Source: Caldichromatium japonicum
Lineage (GTDB): Bacteria > Pseudomonadota > Gammaproteobacteria > Chromatiales > Chromatiaceae
DNA length: 64,000 nucleotides
Reading direction: 5' to 3'
Assembly: GCF_011290485.1 (NCBI RefSeq)
Contig: NZ_CP048029.1
Coordinates: 2,118,501-2,182,500, forward strand
Below, piece by piece: positions 25,102 through 62,550 of this stretch. The stretch's first letter is position 1. Every line of letters begins with the position of its first letter. The position numbers were made by a program, and so were the translations under genes. Below the pieces are notes generated by a model that was not told where the DNA came from, ran no database searches, and saw nothing but the letters and a program-made list of their open reading frames with translations.

Positions 25102-25551
25102 ATGAACAAATATCCATCTCGGCAGACGCCCCTGACACCCCGCCTTACCCGCGGCTTTACCTTGGTTGAACTCTTGGTGGTCCTGGCCATCCTGGGTCTC
25201 TTGGCCGGTTTGGTAGGGCCCCAGGTGATGAAGTTTTTAGGCAGTTCCAAAAGCAAGACGGCCAAGCTGCAAATCGAAGATCTGGCGGCAGCCTTGGATC
25301 TGTATCGTCTTGAGATTGGACGTTATCCGACCGAGGCCGAAGGGCTTAGGGCATTGGTCGAAAAACCTGGAAATGTGCCGAACTGGAATGGCCCGTACCT
25401 GAAGAAAAAAGAGGTGCCGAAGGACCCCTGGGGCTTCGACTACTATTATCTGTTCCCTGGACAGCACGGGGCCTTTGATATCTGGTCGCTCGGTGCCGAT
25501 AACCGCGAGGGCGGCGAGGGCGAGAACGCCGATGTGACGAGCTGGGATTAG
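25102..25551 (+). CDS. gspG: Type II secretion system major pseudopilin
   Basis: Main subunit of the T2SS pseudopilus. The prepilin peptidase site is TRG followed by FTLVELLVVLAILGLLAGL (Glu5 of the mature protein present). The C-terminal half has the GspG hallmarks YPTEAEGLRALVEKP, DPWGFDYYYLFPGQHG and the calcium-loop region FDIWSLGADNREGG. Its 149 residues are normal. First of five pseudopilin genes in a row with gaps or overlaps of a few bases, but gspC-F, L, M and N are not in this window. Confidence 0.95.
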   Translation: MNKYPSRQTPLTPRLTRGFTLVELLVVLAILGLLAGLVGPQVMKFLGSSKSKTAKLQIEDLAAALDLYRLEIGRYPTEAEGLRALVEKPGNVPNWNGPYLKKKEVPKDPWGFDYYYLFPGQHGAFDIWSLGADNREGGEGENADVTSWD

Positions 25552-25557
25552 TGTTCG

Positions 25558-26022
25558 GTGTCGAGGTGTCACCGAGGCTCAGGGCGCGGCTTCACCCTGG
25601 TCGAGCTGCTGGTGGTGATGGCGATCGCGGCGCTGATCATGACCGCCATGCCAGCGCTGTTATCCGCCGCGCTACCGGGGATGGAACTCAAATCGTCTGC
25701 CCGCCAAACCGCTGCGACCCTGCGGCTTGCGCGCGAGCTCGCTATCCAGCGCGGAGAGCCTATCGCCGTGATCATCGACCTCGAGGGGCATCGGCTGACG
25801 CTCCCCGGCAAGCGGCCCCTAAGCATCCCTGAGCGCTTGGATCTCAGTTTTGAGATCGCTGGCTCTGAGTTGATCGATGCCCAGCGCGGCACCATCCGTT
25901 TCTTTCCTGATGGGAGCTCGACGGGGGGACGGCTGACCCTGGCCTATCGCGGCCACGGCTATCAGGTAGGGGTGGCCTGGCTAACGGGGCGGATCGCGCT
26001 CGATACCTGGTCCGAGCGATGA
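25558..26022 (+). CDS. gspH: Type II secretion system minor pseudopilin GspH
   Basis: A 154-residue minor pseudopilin starting at GTG 25558, six bases after gspG. Peptidase site GRG before FTLVELLVVMAIAALIMTA, followed by LARELAIQRGEPIAVIIDLE as in GspH/FimT proteins. The 3' end overlaps gspI by 4 bases. Confidence 0.9.
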   Translation: MSRCHRGSGRGFTLVELLVVMAIAALIMTAMPALLSAALPGMELKSSARQTAATLRLARELAIQRGEPIAVIIDLEGHRLTLPGKRPLSIPERLDLSFEIAGSELIDAQRGTIRFFPDGSSTGGRLTLAYRGHGYQVGVAWLTGRIALDTWSER

Positions 26023-26414
26023 GGCTAGAACAACAGGGCTTTTCCCTGCTCGAGATCTTGGTCGCTTTCGCGATCCTGGCCCTGATGCTGGGGGTGCTGC
26101 TCGCGATCTTCGGGCGCGCGACCCAGACGACCATCGCCGCGGCCCAGTATACGCAGGCCGCAACCCTGGCCGAGTCCTTGCTCAATCGCGTCAGCCATGA
26201 CATCGCCCTAGCACCCGGGGTGCTTTCCGGTGAGACCGCAAGCGGCTTTAGCTGGGAGCTCACCCTGGTCGAGCTCGACCTGACCGAGGCGTTCGGGACG
26301 AGCGAATTACCTGTCATCCCTTATCGCGTCGATGCTCGGGTGCTCTGGATCGATGCCGGACGCCCGCGGCAGGTGACCCTCTCGACCTTAAGGCTTCGCC
26401 TGTCCCAACCCTGA
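26019..26414 (+). CDS. gspI: Type II secretion system minor pseudopilin GspI
   Basis: A 131-residue pseudopilin with prepilin site QQG before FSLLEILVAFAILALMLGV. It overlaps gspH by 4 bases (ATGA). GspI normally forms the pseudopilus tip with GspJ and GspK, both encoded next. Confidence 0.9.
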   Translation: MRLEQQGFSLLEILVAFAILALMLGVLLAIFGRATQTTIAAAQYTQAATLAESLLNRVSHDIALAPGVLSGETASGFSWELTLVELDLTEAFGTSELPVIPYRVDARVLWIDAGRPRQVTLSTLRLRLSQP

Positions 26415-55177: not shown

Positions 55178-55194
55178 TTGGCATACAATCTGCC
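55178..55194 (+). promoter_or_regulatory. Sigma-54 (RpoN) promoter of the pilin gene
   Basis: TTGGCATACAATCTGCC matches the -24/-12 RpoN pattern with exact GG-to-GC spacing of 12. It places transcription start about 60 bases before the pilin ATG, the usual distance for PilR/RpoN-controlled pilA genes. A GGGAG ribosome-binding site precedes the ATG. Confidence 0.7.
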
Positions 55195-55264
55195 TATTCT
55201 TAGGCCAGAAGTCTGGTGATCCAGGCTTCGCTGCGAGCAGTCATCAATCCATGGGAGATCCATC

Positions 55265-55684
55265 ATGAAACGCTATGAAGCCGGCTTCACCCTGATCGAA
55301 CTCATGATCGTGGTGGCCATCATCGGTGTCCTGGCGGCGATCGCCTTGCCCGCCTATCAAGACTATACCTTTAAGGCCCGTGTCTCCGAACTGACCCTGG
55401 CCGCAAGCTCGGCGCGCACCTGTATTACCGAGATCACCCAGTCGGCTGGCAAAGGCGCCAACCTGGAAACCTGCGACAATGACTTCAGCCGGACTCAATA
55501 TGTTGATTCGCTGACGGTATCAAACACTACTGGTGTCATCAGAGCGGTTGGCGTCAGCGCCAAATTCAATAACCAAAACGTGCAAATCACCCTGACCCCC
55601 TCCTTCAGCGGCAGCTATCACATCAGTAAATGGACCTGCACGGGTAGCCCGAACAAGTGGATGCCCGGTTCCTGCCGTGGCTGA
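55265..55684 (+). CDS. pilA: Type IV major pilin
   Basis: A 139-residue prepilin with short leader MKRYEAG cut before [20 protein letters not shown] (Glu5 present). Two cysteine pairs are visible: C53/C70 and C125/C137, the latter forming the C-terminal D-region loop. The mature domain contains one N-glycosylation sequon, N87-T-T89. It has its own sigma-54 promoter and is followed by a terminator and then by glycosylation genes on the same strand. The leader length and the C-terminal loop mark it as a type IVa pilin and not a T2SS pseudopilin. Confidence 0.93.
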
Positions 55685-55712
55685 TCAAATCGTCTAGGTT
55701 CATCTAGTCCTT

Positions 55713-55741
55713 AAGCCCTGTGTCGAGCAGGGCTTTTTTAT
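55713..55741 (+). terminator. Rho-independent terminator after the pilin gene
   Basis: Stem AAGCCCTG / CAGGGCTT with a 7-base loop followed directly by TTTTT. It separates abundant pilin mRNA from the glycosylation genes starting 10 bases later, which are probably reached by read-through. Confidence 0.85.
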
Positions 55742-55751
55742 TGTTAAGGCC

Positions 55752-57674
55752 ATGCGCGCTCCCTCACCTATATCATTGGTGCTCACCAGCCTGGTCGCTG
55801 CATCCCTGACCCTATTGGCCTATTGGCCAGGGACACAGGGGGCACTTTATTATGATGACTATGCCTCGCTCAAGGACCTCAGCAAGACCCAAAGATGGGT
55901 TGATGCCCTCGGCTTCATCCTCTCTGGCGAAACCGGACCCTTGGGTCGGCCCATTGCCTTGGCGAGCTTTGTCCCGCAGGCCGCAGCCTGGCCCGATAAC
56001 ACCCAGGACCTGCTGGCGGTCAATGTCTTCATCCATGTCCTCAACGCCGTCCTGCTTGGCCAGCTCGTGTATATGGTCATGCGCCTGCGCCAGGCAGAGG
56101 GTCTGAGGGCTGGCTGGATTGCCCTCGGCGCCGCCTGGCTCTGGTCGCTCATGCCGCTCCTTGCCTCGACCAGTCTGATCCTGATCCAGCGGATGACCAC
56201 CCTGTCTGCGACCTTCTCGCTCCTCGGTCTCGTGGGCTTTGTGGCGGCCTATCCACTGCGCGCCCAGCGGCCTAGACTCGCCTTTTTGATTCAATATGGG
56301 GCCTTGGCGATCTTTACCCTTCTTGGTGTATTCACCAAAGAAAACGCCGCACTCACCCCTTTATATGCGTTATTGATCGATTCACTCCTGCTCAACCGCC
56401 TTACCTATCCCAAGCCCTGGCAATATCTCTCCAGGGCGATCTTATTGGCTGCCCTGGCATTGATCATCTGGTATCTGTCGCCGCTCCATCTGGATTGGTG
56501 GGGCATTAATGAAGATCGCGGCTGGTCGTCCTGGCAACGCCTGCAATATCAGGCCGTCTTGTTATGGGAATATGTCCGCCTCCTCCTTTCCCCCTTGCCC
56601 ACCGCCTTTGGTCCTTTCCATGATGTCCGTACCCTGAGCGATTATTCCTTTGCCCAATCCATCCTTGCCGCCTGTGCCTGGTGCCTTGCCATCGGCGCTG
56701 GGGCCTGGCTCCTAGTCCGTCAGCGCAATCCTTGGCTGCTGTTTGCCATCCTGTGGTTTCTCACCGGCCACCTGCTCGAATCGACGGTGATCAATCTCGA
56801 GCTGATGTTCGAGCATCGCAACTATCTCGCGGCCTTTGGCATCGCCTGGGCGCTCGCGGTCGCCGCCGCCCATGCGCCTGGACGCCTAAGCCGCATCGCG
56901 CCGGTCTTGTTTTTGGCCTTCGTCTGCATCAATGGCCTGAGCCTCTTTGCCATGACCAGACTCTGGGGCAACCCTGAGGCAGCAGCGGAGACCTGGGCGG
57001 CCCGTTATCCGTCCTCGCCGCGCGCCGCCATGCATGCCGCATCCATCCTGACCGCAGCCAGGGGTCCCCTTTCAGATCAGGTCGATAGGCTCGAATTGGC
57101 AAATGATATCCAGCGCGCCATCGTGATCCTCGATCGTACTGCTCATTACTGCCCAGACTGCGCCGACGTGCGCCTCAACGCCCTGCTCCTGACCTGTTAT
57201 CTTGCCGACCGCACCGATATTAAAAGACGACTTGATGATCTTATGCGTCTCATGCAACAGACTGGACGCATCAATGTATCAGTAGCCGATGCCTTCTTTA
57301 TCCTCGATAACTTGGTGAGCACTGGTCAATGCCCCACGCTCTCTCAAGATGATCTTCTTCGCCTGATCGACAGCATCGATCAGCGTTCAACCCCTATCTC
57401 GGCCCCCTGGTTGGCGCGGATCTTATTTGTGGGCGCCCGTATCCACTATGAAAATCAACGTTATGAGCAAGCATCACTGTTATTAGACAAGGCTGAGAGG
57501 GCGCAACCTCTGGCTCAGCCTATCCTTGAATATCAGGTCGATCTTTACAAGATGCTGGGTCGTCCAGATGAGGCATTGGCTGCCATTGAACGGCGTCGTC
57601 GGCTGGATCCCCAAAAGACAGGGATGACGGATCAATGGTTAGATGAGCTAGAACGATCGGTTAAAAACCCATGA
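55752..57674 (+). CDS. GT-C-type membrane protein with C-terminal TPR region (TMTC-like), first paralogue
   Basis: A 640-residue protein: 10-12 transmembrane helices, then a soluble TPR-like C-terminus (from about residue 430). The first extracytoplasmic loop has the acidic pair in ALYYDDYASL (D35, D36) and GPLGRPIALASF, as expected of GT-C glycosyltransferases. Later blocks TKENAALTPLYALLIDSLLL and LMFEHRNYLAAFGIAWALA resemble the layout of TMTC-type mannosyltransferases (acidic loop, KE motif, C-terminal TPRs). The soluble part begins with a CxxC (HYCPDCADVRLNALLLTC). It sits between the pilin and an STT3-like oligosaccharyltransferase and overlaps the latter by 4 bases, so a role in building or transferring the pilin glycan is likely. 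Wzy or O-ligase activity cannot be excluded. Confidence 0.75.
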   Translation: MRAPSPISLVLTSLVAASLTLLAYWPGTQGALYYDDYASLKDLSKTQRWVDALGFILSGETGPLGRPIALASFVPQAAAWPDNTQDLLAVNVFIHVLNAVLLGQLVYMVMRLRQAEGLRAGWIALGAAWLWSLMPLLASTSLILIQRMTTLSATFSLLGLVGFVAAYPLRAQRPRLAFLIQYGALAIFTLLGVFTKENAALTPLYALLIDSLLLNRLTYPKPWQYLSRAILLAALALIIWYLSPLHLDWWGINEDRGWSSWQRLQYQAVLLWEYVRLLLSPLPTAFGPFHDVRTLSDYSFAQSILAACAWCLAIGAGAWLLVRQRNPWLLFAILWFLTGHLLESTVINLELMFEHRNYLAAFGIAWALAVAAAHAPGRLSRIAPVLFLAFVCINGLSLFAMTRLWGNPEAAAETWAARYPSSPRAAMHAASILTAARGPLSDQVDRLELANDIQRAIVILDRTAHYCPDCADVRLNALLLTCYLADRTDIKRRLDDLMRLMQQTGRINVSVADAFFILDNLVSTGQCPTLSQDDLLRLIDSIDQRSTPISAPWLARILFVGARIHYENQRYEQASLLLDKAERAQPLAQPILEYQVDLYKMLGRPDEALAAIERRRRLDPQKTGMTDQWLDELERSVKNP

Positions 57675-59761
57675 ATCGACCCCTGCAGGCCTTGTATGCG
57701 CACTGGGAGTGGCTGGTTATTTTTTTTGCAGCCATCCTCGGGATTTATTGGCGGCTCATGGATTGGAGCCAATGGCCAAGGATCATCGATCCTCAGATAG
57801 GGGTAGCCTTACCCCTGCTGGGAAATGCCGATGGCTATTATTATCTTGGGCTCGCCCGTGACCTCATTGAAGGCCTATATGGGCAAACGCCTTGGCTGCG
57901 TGTCTTTCCTGAGCAGCCCCTGCGTCCGGAGCCCGCCCCATTGCTTGCAGTCATGACGGCCCTCATCAGCCGATGGACGGCAAGCCCGTTACAGGGCGTC
58001 GCTGCGGTGCTCCCCGCTATCCTCGGCGTCTTGATCGTCGTCCCTACTGCCCTGATCAGCCGTACGATCGGTAGCAAATGGCTCACAACCCTCTCCGCCA
58101 TCCTTGTAGTCCTGATCCCTTATTATGCCCAACGCAGTGGTCTGGGCTGGTATGATACAGATGCGCTGGTAGTGACACTGCCTTTGGCGATATCGGCAAT
58201 CGTTATCATCCTGCTCGATCATCCGAAAAACCCAAGGATCCTCCTCACAGGAGGTCTTTTTCTGATTGGCCTGGTCTTATTCTATTACCAGTGGTGGGAT
58301 CAGGCGCCGCAAATAGTGTTTCTGTTGTCCAGCTATCTAATGATAGCCTTATTAATCCTTGGCTGGCGCCAGGGTCATCTGAGGATAGCCGCGCTTGTCG
58401 GACTCTTATCGGTCATTGCCTTTTTGCCGATCTCATTAAACGAGGTCTGGCCACGGGTCTTTGGCATACTGAGCTATCTCGCTAAGACCCCGGACGCTGT
58501 CTTTTCTCCAACCGGCATTGCCATCGGAGAACAGCAGCCCCTTCCGCTTTGGCTTGGAATAAAGGCCTGTGCAGCAAATCCAGCGATGCTCGCCCTTGTA
58601 TTGTTTGGCATTACCTCTCTTGGCATCAAAAGGCCACAGGTCCCGCTACTTTTAGCGCCCTTTATCGTGATTGGACTCGCCGGCATTTTTGTAGCCGAGC
58701 GTTTTCTCATCTTCATGGCGCCAGTAATTGCGATTGGCCTGGTCGGAGCGATTGATTTTATATATACAAGGCTCAATAAGATATTTGCCTTGCCCCTTGC
58801 CATCCTCTTGGCAGCGGCGTTCTCTGCCGCACTCATGCTGGCGCGCGATGATCAGGCGATGTCGCAGCCGGTCATCCCCCTAGAGGTGATTGAGCCTATG
58901 TCGAGACTCTCCCACCAAATACCACAGGATGCAGTGATCTGGAATCTGTGCGACTATGGCTATGCCCTCACCTACTGGACCCGACGTCCGACCATCTGTG
59001 ATGGTTCATCCCACAGCCCTGCCCGCAGGACGTTCACGGCCTTTCCGCTCTATGCCGATACCACGCAACAGTCGGCGCGCTTTATCCATTTTTATCTAAG
59101 GCATGGTATCCAAGGCATGGATCGAGTCCTTCAGTATTTCCAAAACAACTGGCCGCGCGCACGTGATTTCATGCTCACCATATACAATATGCCGCCAGAA
59201 GAGGCCAAGGTATGGCTTATAAATCACTTATCAAGTCTTTCGGCAGACGAAGCCGCTCAATGGATTGAATTTTTATTCCCCAAACAAGAGCGGCCAGTTT
59301 ATATTATATTGGATCGCCAAACCATGCGTAACACCCACTGGTGGTACTGGTTTTCGACCTGGGATCCTCAAAGAAAAAAAGGGATACATCCTTATTATAT
59401 CCTGTTTCCTTATCTACCTGAGATACCCAAACAGGGTAGGATCGAAGACCCAGCAGGTCTATTCTGGATCGACTGGGAGCAAGGGGTTGTCCAGTTCCGC
59501 GGTCGTACTGAATATTTGCGATATCTCAATTGGATTGAAGATGGTAAACGCGATCAGATCGAATTCGATCATTCAGGCTACTGGATCATGGACATCCTGA
59601 TTTCAGATCGCTATGCAATCCTCCATGACCCACTGACCCACGGAAAGGTTGGTCACCTGCTTTATACCCAAACGATCGATTCACATCTTTTTGAACCAGC
59701 GATGATAACTGGCGTCGAGTTTCAAGCGTGGAAAGTCAGGCATCCTGACGATCCAAACTGA
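57671..59761 (+). CDS. STT3/PglB/AglB-type oligosaccharyltransferase
   Basis: A 696-residue membrane enzyme predicted to transfer a lipid-linked glycan to asparagine. About 13 helices precede a soluble domain (from about residue 395). Family motifs: first metal site NADGYYYLGLARDL (D54), second RSGLGWYDTDALVVTLPLA (D162, D164; compare SGYYDTDML of Campylobacter PglB), the EL5 glutamate in IAIGEQQP (E287; SVSEHQP in eukaryotes), and the signature region WNLCDYGYALTYWTRRPTIC followed by DGSSHS. The sequon-binding WWD is replaced by LCD at 426-428. It overlaps the preceding gene by 4 bases and lies 12 bases before the second GT-C/TPR gene. STT3 membership is well supported; acceptor and glycan are inference. 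Confidence 0.85.
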   Translation: MNRPLQALYAHWEWLVIFFAAILGIYWRLMDWSQWPRIIDPQIGVALPLLGNADGYYYLGLARDLIEGLYGQTPWLRVFPEQPLRPEPAPLLAVMTALISRWTASPLQGVAAVLPAILGVLIVVPTALISRTIGSKWLTTLSAILVVLIPYYAQRSGLGWYDTDALVVTLPLAISAIVIILLDHPKNPRILLTGGLFLIGLVLFYYQWWDQAPQIVFLLSSYLMIALLILGWRQGHLRIAALVGLLSVIAFLPISLNEVWPRVFGILSYLAKTPDAVFSPTGIAIGEQQPLPLWLGIKACAANPAMLALVLFGITSLGIKRPQVPLLLAPFIVIGLAGIFVAERFLIFMAPVIAIGLVGAIDFIYTRLNKIFALPLAILLAAAFSAALMLARDDQAMSQPVIPLEVIEPMSRLSHQIPQDAVIWNLCDYGYALTYWTRRPTICDGSSHSPARRTFTAFPLYADTTQQSARFIHFYLRHGIQGMDRVLQYFQNNWPRARDFMLTIYNMPPEEAKVWLINHLSSLSADEAAQWIEFLFPKQERPVYIILDRQTMRNTHWWYWFSTWDPQRKKGIHPYYILFPYLPEIPKQGRIEDPAGLFWIDWEQGVVQFRGRTEYLRYLNWIEDGKRDQIEFDHSGYWIMDILISDRYAILHDPLTHGKVGHLLYTQTIDSHLFEPAMITGVEFQAWKVRHPDDPN

Positions 59762-59773
59762 AAAATACCAAAA

Positions 59774-61675
59774 ATGAACACAAACAACCATCTTCGATTG
59801 GCATTCATCACGCTGATCCTTTCTGCGGTTTATTTCGCCTACCAACCTGCATTGATCGGTACTTTATTTTATGACGATTTTGTAAATATCGGTCGGCTCG
59901 ATCAGGTCAAAGACCTCTCATCGATGATCGAGTTTGTATTTGGCGGAACGGCAGGACCCACGGGCCGACCTATTGCGCTGGCAAGTCTTATTCCTCATGT
60001 CGCTGACTGGCCTAATAACGCCGCAAACATTTTAAGGGCCAACCTGTTCATCCATCTTTTGAATGGCATTTTGTTGTTTATACTGGCGAACCTGATCCTG
60101 CAACATCAAGAACAGATCGCAGAGACCCAGCGTTTCTGGATTGCACTCAGTGCCGCCAGCCTCTGGTTGGTGATGCCCCTCCTTGCCTCAACCACTCTCA
60201 TCGCTGTTCAACGCATGACCAGTCTTTCTGCCCTTTTTGGATTATTGGGGCTCATCGGTTTTGTTTCTGGTTATCGTTGGCAACACACTGATCCCAAAAA
60301 GGCGCTTGTTATCCAGTTGACTGGCTTAGCGATAGGCAGCTTGCTGGCAAGCCTAGCCAAAGAAAGCGGCGCGCTTTTTCCTATTTACGCCTTGATTATC
60401 GATACACTTGTGATTCGCCAACCAAAGATCCCAGCTTGGTTAAAACTTGCCAGACAGCTTCCACTCTGGGCATCGCTGGTATTTATCCTATTTTTTTTAT
60501 CGCCCCTGATGCAGGACTGGACAGCGACAGATGCCTCTTTTGGATGGTCGCCGCTTGCCCGTTTACAAACAGAGTCCGTGCTGCTTTGGAAATATCTGGG
60601 TCTTGCGTTGGCACCTCAACCGACTGCATTTGGCCCCTTCCATGACGATGTGCAAATCATTACCGGCTGGCCGGTATTTATCTCGATCGCCTCTTTCATG
60701 ATTTGGCTATTGGTTGGGTTTTTACTTCGGCACAAAACACCTTGGATACTTTTTGCGGCGCTCTGGTATCTAGGTGGACATTTACTCGAATCCACTGTAT
60801 TACCTTTGGAGCTCTTTTTTGAACATCGCAATTATTTGCCGATATTCGGCATCTGTCTCAGCTTAGCAGTGCTGGCCTGGGGTTTACCGGGATCGATCAA
60901 AAAGTGGGGGCCGGTGTTTTTTGGCATTTATATCTTATTACAAGCGGCCGTATTATATGGGTTAACCACCATCTGGGGCAATCCTTTAGAGGCTGGCGAA
61001 AACTGGGTCAAACGTCATCCAAACTCATCCCGCGCCATTCTACATTTGGTAGCTGGTTATCACGAGGAATATGGCAATCCCAGCTATGCATTGCTGTTTC
61101 TAGATAATATCAAAGGATGTAACGACTGCATCGATGTCAAGATGCAGGCATTGATCTATTCTTGCGGATTCGAAGAGCCCAGCCAGACGCGCCAAAGATT
61201 TGCAGATCTTGAAAGATTGGCCAGGAGAGGAAAGGCCTCTGTCGCCTTGTTGGATAGCCTCTATCTTTTTCATGATCTCGATCATAGACCCTGCCCTCCC
61301 CTTGAGCGTCAAGATCTTTTACACCTTATAAAGGATATTTTGGACAATCCGAACTTTGGCGCAAGTCGCTACCAGATCCATGCGCTCTATCATGCCGCGA
61401 TCTTCAGCGATCAACTCGGACTGAGCGAGGATGCATTAAAATATCTAAGAGAGGCTGAGCTGCTTGACCCGACAGTGATGCCGATCCTAAGGCTTCAAGT
61501 TGCAGTTTATGCCAAAATAGCCCGACTGGATCAGGCACTCGCTGCGATCGAGCGCAGGCGTCATCTTGCAAACCGCTCCCCAACAATTTCTGATACTGAT
61601 CTCGATCGGCTTGTCAGTGAAATCACGACCTCTCCACCAAACCCCGATCACTCAATTGAGAGACAAGCAAGATGA
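59774..61675 (+). CDS. GT-C-type membrane protein with C-terminal TPR region (TMTC-like), second paralogue
   Basis: A 633-residue paralogue of the protein at 55752: same order of blocks (LFYDDFVNIG with D34/D35; GPTGRPIALASLIPH; LLASTTLIAVQRMTSLSALF; ELFFEHRNYLPIFGI) and the same CxxC opening of the soluble part (KGCNDCIDVKMQALIYSC). The two are clearly diverged, so the duplication is old, and both have been kept on either side of the oligosaccharyltransferase. This gene and the 3' half of the STT3 gene are more AT-rich than neighbours. It overlaps the GT2 gene by 4 bases. Confidence 0.75.
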   Translation: MNTNNHLRLAFITLILSAVYFAYQPALIGTLFYDDFVNIGRLDQVKDLSSMIEFVFGGTAGPTGRPIALASLIPHVADWPNNAANILRANLFIHLLNGILLFILANLILQHQEQIAETQRFWIALSAASLWLVMPLLASTTLIAVQRMTSLSALFGLLGLIGFVSGYRWQHTDPKKALVIQLTGLAIGSLLASLAKESGALFPIYALIIDTLVIRQPKIPAWLKLARQLPLWASLVFILFFLSPLMQDWTATDASFGWSPLARLQTESVLLWKYLGLALAPQPTAFGPFHDDVQIITGWPVFISIASFMIWLLVGFLLRHKTPWILFAALWYLGGHLLESTVLPLELFFEHRNYLPIFGICLSLAVLAWGLPGSIKKWGPVFFGIYILLQAAVLYGLTTIWGNPLEAGENWVKRHPNSSRAILHLVAGYHEEYGNPSYALLFLDNIKGCNDCIDVKMQALIYSCGFEEPSQTRQRFADLERLARRGKASVALLDSLYLFHDLDHRPCPPLERQDLLHLIKDILDNPNFGASRYQIHALYHAAIFSDQLGLSEDALKYLREAELLDPTVMPILRLQVAVYAKIARLDQALAAIERRRHLANRSPTISDTDLDRLVSEITTSPPNPDHSIERQAR

Positions 61676-62550
61676 ATCATAACGGCCTGTATTCATCTAT
61701 CTCCATCATCCTCCCCGCCAAGAACGAATCGGCCTGTGTCGGGCCATTGCTTGCCAAAATCCGCGCGCTTTATCCTGAGGCCGAATTGATTGTGGTCGAT
61801 GATGGATCGACCGATGAGACGCCAAGGATTGCCGAGGCGGCAGGGGCGCGGGTGATCTCGCATCCCTATAGTCTCGGCAATGGGGCGGCGATCAAATCAG
61901 GCGCGCGTGCGGCCAGGGGTGAGGTCCTGGTCTTTCTAGATGCCGACGGTCAGCACGACCCGGCCGACATCCCCCGCCTGCTTGCACCCCTCACCCAAGG
62001 CTATGACATGGTCGTAGGCGCACGGCAAAGGGGCTCACAGGCCAACTGGGGGCGGGGGCTGGCCAACACCTTTTACAACGCCTTTGCCAGCCTGATGACG
62101 GGCCACCGCATCCAGGACCTCACCTCCGGCTTTCGCGCCGTGCGCACCCAGCGTTTTCGACAGTTTTTATATCTCTTGCCAAACGGTTTTTCTTACCCGT
62201 CCACCATCACCATGGCCTTTTTCCGGTCGGGTTATCCAGTGGCCTATGTGCCGATCCATGCCGGCCGACGCCAGGGCCGAGCCAGTCACATCAATCCCTT
62301 GCGCGACGGCGTGCGCTTCTTATTGATCCTCATGAAGGTCGCCACCCTTTATTCACCACTTAAGGTGTTCTTTCCAGTGAGCGCCCTGCTCTTTGTCACT
62401 GGCCTTGGCTATTACCTCTACACCTTCGCGACTATGCACAAGTTCACCAATATGAGTCTCTTATTGTTCACGGCAGCCCTGGTTGTCTTTATGATGGGTC
62501 TGGTCTCAGAGCAGATCACCGCCCTCTCTTACCGCGAGGGGGATCGTTAG
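61672..62550 (+). CDS. GT2 polyprenyl-phosphate sugar transferase (DPM1/GtrB-like)
   Basis: A 292-residue family 2 glycosyltransferase. The catalytic part has ISIILPAKNESACVGPLLAK, VVDDGSTDETP and the DXD-bearing VLVFLDADGQHDPADIP, then LTSGFRAVRTQRF. Two C-terminal transmembrane helices follow (VFFPVSALLFVTGLGYYLY, LLLFTAALVVFMMGLVSEQI). Enzymes of this type load a nucleotide sugar onto undecaprenyl or dolichyl phosphate, giving the donor used by GT-C enzymes. Last gene of the pilin-glycosylation unit. Bases 62551-62806 after it contain no recognised gene. Confidence 0.88.
   Translation: MNHNGLYSSISIILPAKNESACVGPLLAKIRALYPEAELIVVDDGSTDETPRIAEAAGARVISHPYSLGNGAAIKSGARAARGEVLVFLDADGQHDPADIPRLLAPLTQGYDMVVGARQRGSQANWGRGLANTFYNAFASLMTGHRIQDLTSGFRAVRTQRFRQFLYLLPNGFSYPSTITMAFFRSGYPVAYVPIHAGRRQGRASHINPLRDGVRFLLILMKVATLYSPLKVFFPVSALLFVTGLGYYLYTFATMHKFTNMSLLLFTAALVVFMMGLVSEQITALSYREGDR

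What the first reader, a model, noticed from the sequence alone, without database searches (positions are those of the whole stretch)
55178..62550. Candidate pilin glycosylation locus built on an STT3-type oligosaccharyltransferase
A type IV pilin is followed on the same strand by GT-C/TPR protein, STT3/PglB-like enzyme, second GT-C/TPR protein and a DPM1/GtrB-like GT2, with overlaps or gaps of 12 bases or less among the last four. Gammaproteobacterial pilin loci usually carry PilO/TfpO (WaaL-like) or TfpW. An STT3-type enzyme beside pilA would be an unusual route to a glycosylated pilus. The complete set (donor loading, possible extension or transfer, ligase, acceptor) is in one place.
Basis: partly seen in the sequence, partly recalled or inferred. 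Interest (0 to 1): 0.82.

Follow-up and report, generated by a model that had tools for sequence, protein, structure and literature searches.

The report
Pilus sugar-coating cassette with altered STT3
Next to its pilus-subunit gene, this bacterium (likely a purple sulfur bacterium) carries a rare relative of the enzymes that N-glycosylate proteins, found in the same gene order in two other genera but with a cysteine in the motif that normally reads the target site; it is predicted to put sugar on the pilus, probably by a different attachment rule than classical N-glycosylation.

The parts
55178..55193 (+). sigma-54-like promoter element TTGGCATACAATCTGC (GG-N10-GC) upstream of pilA
   Evidence: only match to the pattern in the 64 kb window, 0.20 expected, 17 of 100 shuffles have one or more (pattern chosen after reading the sequence); that pilA promoters are often of this type is recalled
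55265..55684 (+). pilA, type IV pilin, 139 aa, probable acceptor; one N-X-S/T sequon (NTT); C-terminal Cys-to-Cys loop [13 protein letters not shown] (disulfide presumed)
   Evidence: PF07963 and PF00114 over cut-off; pilin comparison
55713..55735 (+). terminator-like hairpin with T tail between pilA and the accessory genes
   Evidence: 9-pair stem, TTTTATTGTT tail (16 terminator-like sites found in the region, 7.1 expected); fold -16.2 kcal/mol, z -2.90
55752..57674 (+). GTC1: predicted GT-C glycosyltransferase (residues 1-432) with C-terminal TPR domain
57671..59761 (+). STT3/PglB-type enzyme with LCDYG in place of WWDYG and the clade-specific Cys427/Cys443 pair
59774..61675 (+). GTC2: second GT-C/TPR protein, paralogue of GTC1
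   Evidence: 40% identity over 648 columns to GTC1
61672..62550 (+). GT2 of the DPM1/ArnC/AglJ type, predicted polyprenyl-phosphate sugar synthase
   Evidence: PF00535 114.4 bits; AglJ model 134.9 bits, under its cut-off of 325; matches to solved ArnC and Dol-P-Man synthase

Best explanation
The locus is a likely pilin-modification cassette in which an STT3-family enzyme with a changed sequon-reading motif stands inside the widespread gammaproteobacterial set pilA, GT-C/TPR protein and GT2, and it is predicted to transfer sugar to the neighbouring pilin, probably not at a classical N-X-S/T sequon. Proposed steps: (1) the GT2 would load a sugar onto polyprenyl phosphate in the cytoplasm (inferred from family); (2) the GT-C/TPR proteins would use that donor in the periplasm to attach or extend sugar on PilA (inferred from fold and gene order; such GTCs occur mostly without STT3); (3) the STT3 enzyme keeps its metal-site acids, the TIXE glutamate and the aligned arginine (shown) and so is likely an active transferase, but the motif that reads Ser/Thr at +2 of an Asn sequon is L-C-D-Y-G, and its Cys is matched by a second clade-specific Cys (shown), probably a disulfide (inferred, distance not measured), so it likely recognises another acceptor, most simply PilA (inferred). 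The repeated pairing of STT3 relatives with a GT2 of this type suggests a polyprenyl-monophosphate rather than diphosphate donor, as in Euryarchaeota (inferred).
For: Gene order pilA-GTC-STT3-GT2 in the window, in T. bogorovii (L038) and in T. paradoxus (L166); in a fourth case GTC (P0011) and STT3 (P0003) both have a longest contig of 8,638 bases. The cassette without STT3 is common: relatives of the T. paradoxus GTC in 107 of 369 gammaproteobacterial genomes; of the 30 loci fetched there, 19 have a pilin and 22 a GT2 match in the short flanks. STT3 family and fold. D54, E287 and R344 are invariant in 71 distinct aligned STT3s, D162 and D164 in 68 of 71. Motif change: the second Trp of WWDYG is Cys in 7 of 7 clade members and 0 of 64 others; Cys443 likewise 7 of 7 and 0 of 64. 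C. jejuni PglB W458C (found three times), W457S and W458R are listed as inactive with strong production (PMC3527161 passages). No shared sequon: NTT at 81, none, NTS at 105 in the three linked pilins. A close relative of the window GT2 lies within 1.5 kb of STT3 in 21 of 54 genome-contig loci. A type IV prepilin gene lies within 5 kb in 7 of 15 gammaproteobacterial STT3 loci (6 by script, the seventh by Pfam), in 0 of 54 genome-contig loci and 0 of 20 random 12.2 kb stretches.
Against: No glycan, pilus or mutant data exist. The window pilin does carry one sequon (NTT), so N-linkage is not excluded. Only seven clade members are known; the pilin context is shown for three, one more shares a contig length with a GTC, three are unknown. 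One member (P0006, ACKQG) has also lost the Asp of the motif. The disulfide is inferred from co-occurrence. The GT2 belongs to the STT3-less cassette (81-85% identical in same-genus genomes G003, G005, G006 without detected STT3), so its presence here is not by itself proof that STT3 uses its product; 33 of 54 genome contigs STT3s show no close relative of this GT2 within 1.5 kb, though 8 of these have a weaker GT2 match (13 of the 54 have a flank under 1.5 kb). In T. bogorovii and T. paradoxus a GT4-type glycosyltransferase gene follows the GT2, which fits a longer, preassembled lipid-linked glycan better than a single-sugar donor; the window has no such gene at that place.
Confidence: 0.5

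Rival explanations
1. Classical N-linked pilin glycosylation: the STT3 is a PglB-like oligosaccharyltransferase that puts a glycan on Asn of N-X-S/T sites of PilA, as archaeal AglB does on archaeal pilins.
For: PglB fold over the whole length; catalytic acids kept; the window pilin has an NTT site and the T. paradoxus pilin an NTS site; archaeal pilins are AglB targets (PMC5131992 abstract passage).
Against: WWDYG is LCDYG, and Trp-to-Cys or Trp-to-Ser there inactivates C. jejuni PglB (passages); the T. bogorovii pilin has no sequon and the other two are at different places; the MI(V) motif is not recognisable at the aligned columns (alignment uncertain there).
Confidence: 0.17
2. The STT3-fold enzyme is not the protein ligase: GTC1 or GTC2 attaches the first sugar to PilA, and the STT3 relative adds further sugars to the growing chain, on the pilin or on a lipid carrier.
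For: GTC occurs next to pilA mostly without STT3, so GTC alone probably suffices for attachment; TfpW adds D-Araf homopolymers to pilin (PMC11841053 passage); several GT-C enzymes that extend glycans are among the fold matches (ALG9, ALG12, AftD).
Against: The enzyme keeps the TIXE-type Glu and the full PglB-like periplasmic domain, which GT-C extenders should not need (inference).
Confidence: 0.2
3. Passenger: the lower-GC segment was acquired together with pilA, and the STT3 acts on another envelope protein or not at all.
For: GC drop across the locus; STT3 is sporadic, 8 of 210 genomes of the family, with no match in the seven other genomes of the genus; one clade member has lost the motif Asp.
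Against: The same gene order in two families; D54, D162, D164, E287 and R344 invariant in all seven members.
Confidence: 0.13

Closest known systems
PglB of Campylobacter (bacterial single-subunit N-oligosaccharyltransferase; structures 5ogl, 6gxc, 3rce)
   Different: 17% identity over the structural alignment; WWDYG is LCDYG with a paired new Cys; DGGK is DGSS; the R331 position reads Ala if aligned without gap; sits in a pilA cassette with a polyprenyl-phosphate-sugar-type GT2
TfpW of Pseudomonas aeruginosa group IV pilin loci (GT-C arabinosyltransferase)
   Same: A GT-C enzyme that is a pilin accessory gene and glycosylates its associated pilin (PMC11841053 passages)
   Different: Here the accessory set has GT-C/TPR proteins plus an STT3-family enzyme; the TfpW sequence was not compared
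TfpO/PilO (Wzy_C/WaaL-like pilin O-oligosaccharyltransferase)
   Same: Pilin accessory gene that glycosylates its pilin (PMC11841053 passages)
   Different: No Wzy_C match among the five proteins; the one Wzy_C match of the genome lies at contig position 71,867-72,352, about 2.1 Mb from this locus in the contig's numbering
Archaeal AglJ/AglB N-glycosylation of Euryarchaeota
   Same: STT3 enzyme with a GT2 whose best NCBIfam match is AglJ; monophosphate-type donors are used there (PMC8342417 passage)
   Different: GT2 is far under the AglJ cut-off (134.9 against 325); Hfx. volcanii AglB has WWDYG (PMC5131992 passage)
DPY19 C-mannosyltransferase
   Different: Much farther in fold than PglB; Trp as acceptor here is only a lead

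Membership tests
STT3/PglB/AglB superfamily | PF02516 and core domain over curated cut-offs | tested here: met
   57.6 (24.5) and 29 (23) bits
STT3/PglB/AglB superfamily | Whole-length fold of TM domain plus periplasmic domain | tested here: met
STT3/PglB/AglB superfamily | Metal-site acids, EL5 (TIXE) Glu | tested here: met
   D54, D162, D164, E287
N-linking oligosaccharyltransferase (PglB class) | WWDYG motif that reads Ser/Thr at +2 | tested here: not met
   LCDYG
N-linking oligosaccharyltransferase (PglB class) | MI/DK motif | tested here: inconclusive
   aligned columns give T551, N554, W558, but this stretch is weakly aligned
N-linking oligosaccharyltransferase (PglB class) | NCBIfam ProtGlycPglB equivalog cut-off | tested here: not met
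   52.3 of 1300 bits
N-linking oligosaccharyltransferase (PglB class) | Sequon in the linked acceptor | tested here: inconclusive
   window 1, T. bogorovii 0, T. paradoxus 1 at another place
N-linking oligosaccharyltransferase (PglB class) | Transfer of glycan to Asn | not testable with these tools
   needs mass spectrometry or an in vitro assay
TfpO/PilO | Wzy_C domain | tested here: not met
   no match among the five proteins at E 0.1
TfpW | Sequence relationship of GTC1/GTC2 to TfpW | not tested
   TfpW sequence not fetched
GT-C glycosyltransferase (GTC1) | GT-C transmembrane fold | tested here: met
DPM1/GtrB-like polyprenyl-phosphate sugar synthase | GT2 domain and homology to solved ArnC/DPM1 | tested here: met
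AglJ | TIGR04182 cut-off | tested here: not met
   134.9 of 325 bits

The most novel reading that the evidence does not exclude
A small STT3 clade has turned from an Asn-sequon oligosaccharyltransferase into a pilin-dedicated glycosyltransferase: the Trp pair that reads the sequon is exchanged for a cysteine-locked pocket, the donor is a polyprenyl-monophosphate sugar from the neighbouring GT2, and the acceptor is a non-Asn site of PilA. The boldest form is C-glycosylation of the Trp in the pilin's C-terminal loop, which is present in 3 of 3 STT3-linked pilins and 1 of 33 other pilins of GTC loci (found after the fact).
Probability: 0.3. Interest if true: 0.87.

Novelty: new variant of a known kind. 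Interest (0 to 1): 0.66.

Why it matters
[quoted passage not shown] A clade that keeps the catalytic residues but has changed the sequon reader, and that is tied to one candidate substrate gene in three genera, would make the question 'what fixes the acceptor of an STT3 enzyme' directly testable with one enzyme, one small acceptor and one pair of cysteines. It would also add a further kind of accessory enzyme to the pilA-linked glycosylation genes TfpO and TfpW.

Tried and rejected
Considered and rejected: (1) N-linked glycosylation as the default reading, because of the LCDYG motif and the lack of a shared sequon; it stays as a rival. (2) A Trp in the pilin loop as an exclusive mark of STT3 loci: one pilin without STT3 (G354) has it too, so it stays a lead. 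(3) STT3 as part of the common pilA–GTC–GT2 cassette: it is absent from most carriers. STT3 matches were found in 3 of 55 relatives, 9 of 369 genomes of the class, one of them under the cut-off, 8 of 210 of the family by profile A1, 10 of 210 by Pfam, two of them under the cut-off (the order held the same number of genomes as the family), 1 of 47 of the T. paradoxus family. (4) A canonical TfpO gene in the locus: none.

Led nowhere: papers on STT3 next to pilin genes in Gammaproteobacteria. Nine searches bear on it; none of the listed titles and abstract starts describes it. One search listed 20 of 41 papers, so 21 were not seen; most subscription journals and bioRxiv preprints are not held; of four papers passages were read (PMC11841053, PMC5131992, PMC3527161, PMC8342417), of the rest only the listing. 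A tenth search was for the organism and did not settle its name. Synteny with phoU is weak: it lies by the GT2 only in the closest genome, G003. The Cys427-Cys443 distance could not be measured because model coordinates are not in the Python box. The genome-contig scan reached 54 loci, none of them carrying the clade's Cys motif.

Rows dropped before counts. Pilin linkage: 17 gammaproteobacterial genomes with an STT3 match were in hand; G474 (a 5.2 kb contig) and G185 (match under the cut-off) were left out, giving 15; three further matches (G425, G484, G515; two under the cut-off) were not examined. Flanks are clearly shorter than 5 kb on one or both sides for six of the 15 (G009, G347, G422, G215, G249, G348). 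The script counted 6; G586 was missed because the ORF start it takes lies about 95 codons too far upstream, and its pilin was shown by Pfam. Among the 54 genome-contig loci, 13 have a flank under 1.5 kb, two are gammaproteobacterial (L077, L095), and L095 is the same contig as G177 among the 15. In one search one of 37 pilins gave no reading. In one search the tree used 41 of 88 rows: duplicates, AglB-type rows and part of the genome contigs rows were left out; it warns of long branches meeting between L076 and the clade.
Full report
Observation. The five genes are where the finding puts them, on one strand, tightly packed after pilA. Pfam gives N_methyl and Pilin for 55265-55684, STT3 and STT3-PglB_core for 57671-59761 and a GT2 domain for 61672-62550, all over cut-off; the two GT-C/TPR proteins have no Pfam match over cut-off. 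The latter are paralogues, 40% identical. [quoted passage not shown] the mechanism itself was not in the passage I saw. GC content falls from 0.61-0.64 to 0.47-0.59 over the locus.

Organism. The window is part of one 2,989,870-base contig. Same-genus genome G007 has a contig of 2,958,290 bases, the length given for a Thermochromatium tepidum protein, so the window probably comes from a close relative of that purple sulfur bacterium (Chromatiaceae). Names for G030 (Thiocapsa bogorovii, 5,649,927 bases) and G586 (Thioalkalivibrio paradoxus, 3,756,729 bases) rest on the same kind of length match.

The added STT3. Matches to STT3 are rare in this group: 3 of 55 relatives, 9 of 369 in the class, one of them under the cut-off, 8 of 210 in the family, 1 of 47 in the T. 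paradoxus family. The window's own type is a clade of seven proteins found in two searches of a 5.8-billion-protein database (only candidates sharing most words were scored, so this is a lower bound), with full support in the tree (100/100). In T. bogorovii the order is pilA–GTC–STT3–GT2, with 556 bases before the GT2; in T. paradoxus it is the same. In both, a GT4-type glycosyltransferase gene follows the GT2; in the window phoU follows it. For P0003 and P0011 the only evidence is a shared longest-contig length of 8,638 bases. For the other three members the context is unknown. Same-genus genomes G003, G005 and G006 have the GT2 at 81-85% identity without a detected STT3; G003's contig ends inside its GTC, so absence there is unsure.

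Is the pilin link more than chance? Of 15 gammaproteobacterial STT3 loci examined, 7 have a type IV prepilin gene within 5 kb (6 by script; G586 by Pfam), against 0 of 54 genome-contig loci and 0 of 20 random 12.2 kb stretches of four of these genomes. Flanks are incomplete for some loci in both groups (see Tried and rejected). Three of the seven are the pilA cassette. Two Chromatiaceae cases lie beside minor-pilin genes: G009 (ComP_DUS-type pilin and PilX_N) and G548 (GspH-type pilin and PilY1). Two are AglB-type STT3s directly behind pilins with an MshA-like start; for G128 the neighbours T2SSE, T2SSF and PilN were domain-tested, for G347 the same layout was seen by ORF sizes only. The eight others show no prepilin. 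The window genome itself has N_methyl matches in only three clusters (nine matches).

The acceptor site is different. WWDYG is LCDYG in four clade members including the window's, WCDYG and WCDFG in one each, ACKQG in one. The second Trp is Cys in 7 of 7 clade members; in the 64 others it is Trp in 63 and Ala in 1. A Cys at 443, just before the DGxxH stretch, is likewise in 7 of 7 and 0 of 64, and these are the only two cysteines all seven share. I infer a disulfide across the old Ser/Thr pocket; the distance was not measured. In C. jejuni PglB, W457S, W458R and W458C (three times) are listed as inactive with strong production (PMC3527161 passages), and WWDYG with the DK/MI motif forms the Ser/Thr site (PMC8342417 passages). 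The enzyme as it stands would therefore be expected to fail as a PglB, while invariant catalytic residues argue that it is not dead. Other STT3s also vary at the first Trp or the Asp (SWGHG, NWGHG, SWDAG, SWTSG, DWGKG and others), so loosening of this motif is not confined to the clade, but the second Trp changed to Cys is.

Acceptor. The three STT3-linked pilins have sequons NTT (81), none, and NTS (105), so no sequon is conserved. In the C-terminal Cys-to-Cys loop they share a Trp, [KA]W[ML]PG[ST]C; among 36 pilins of GTC loci that could be read, 3 of 3 with STT3 and 1 of 33 without have it. This was noticed after the fact in related sequences and is a lead only.

Donor. The GT2 is of the DPM1/ArnC/AglJ type. 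Of 54 genome contigs STT3 relatives, mostly from MAGs named Deltaproteobacteria, 21 have a 52-62% identical relative of this very GT2 within 1.5 kb: 20 of them within 50 bases, two on the opposite strand, one a fragment at a contig edge; 33 do not, of which 8 have a weaker GT2 match. Euryarchaeal oligosaccharyltransferases use monophosphate-type donors (PMC8342417 passage). A polyprenyl-monophosphate donor is therefore plausible for this STT3 line, but inferred; the GT4 genes in two of the three loci speak rather for a longer glycan.

Verdict. The interpretation needs one change: this is best read as an STT3-family pilin glycosyltransferase with a changed acceptor site, not as an ordinary N-oligosaccharyltransferase. 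What is shown: gene order in three genera, family and predicted fold, kept catalytic residues, changed acceptor motif with a paired Cys. What is inferred: that PilA is the substrate, that the donor is a monophosphate, that the linkage is not to a sequon Asn, that the two Cys form a disulfide.

Noticed in passing
L052:8717-11302 (G128) and L053:497-3082 (G347): Archaeal AglB-type STT3 (AglB_core-like and AglB_L1 domains over cut-off) directly behind pilins with an MshA-like start; in G128 with T2SSE, T2SSF and PilN genes nearby, in G347 by ORF layout only; another gammaproteobacterial family.
   Followed up: partly
L058-L111, e.g. L058:9821-12930: STT3 next to a DPM1/AglJ-like GT2 in 21 of 54 loci, mostly MAGs named Deltaproteobacteria; a possible two-gene monophosphate-donor glycosylation module.
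   Followed up: partly
L121:1225-7093 (G009) and L122:1-11072 (G548): STT3 genes beside minor-pilin genes (ComP_DUS-type pilin and PilX_N; GspH-type pilin and PilY1) in two Chromatiaceae, with motif WWDYA and SWGHG.
   Followed up: partly
L051:8751-14690 (same contig as L095, Granulosicoccaceae): STT3 with DWGKG motif followed by GT2, an LPG_synthase_TM protein and a GT4 enzyme.
   Followed up: no
L041:6226-11201 (G007): Two nearly identical GT-C/TPR genes (99% identity) on either side of the GT2 behind pilA.
   Followed up: no
L038:13593-14822 (T. bogorovii) and L166:5505-6728 (T. paradoxus): A GT4-type glycosyltransferase gene follows the GT2 in both other STT3 cassettes, but not in the window.
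   Followed up: no
window 25102-26414: Three prepilin-like ORFs in a row, part of a four-match N_methyl cluster, probably type II secretion pseudopilins (label recalled).
   Followed up: no
L042:6382-7641 and L166:4339-5433: IS605- and IS200-type transposase genes near two of the pilA cassettes, in keeping with exchange of these cassettes.
   Followed up: no
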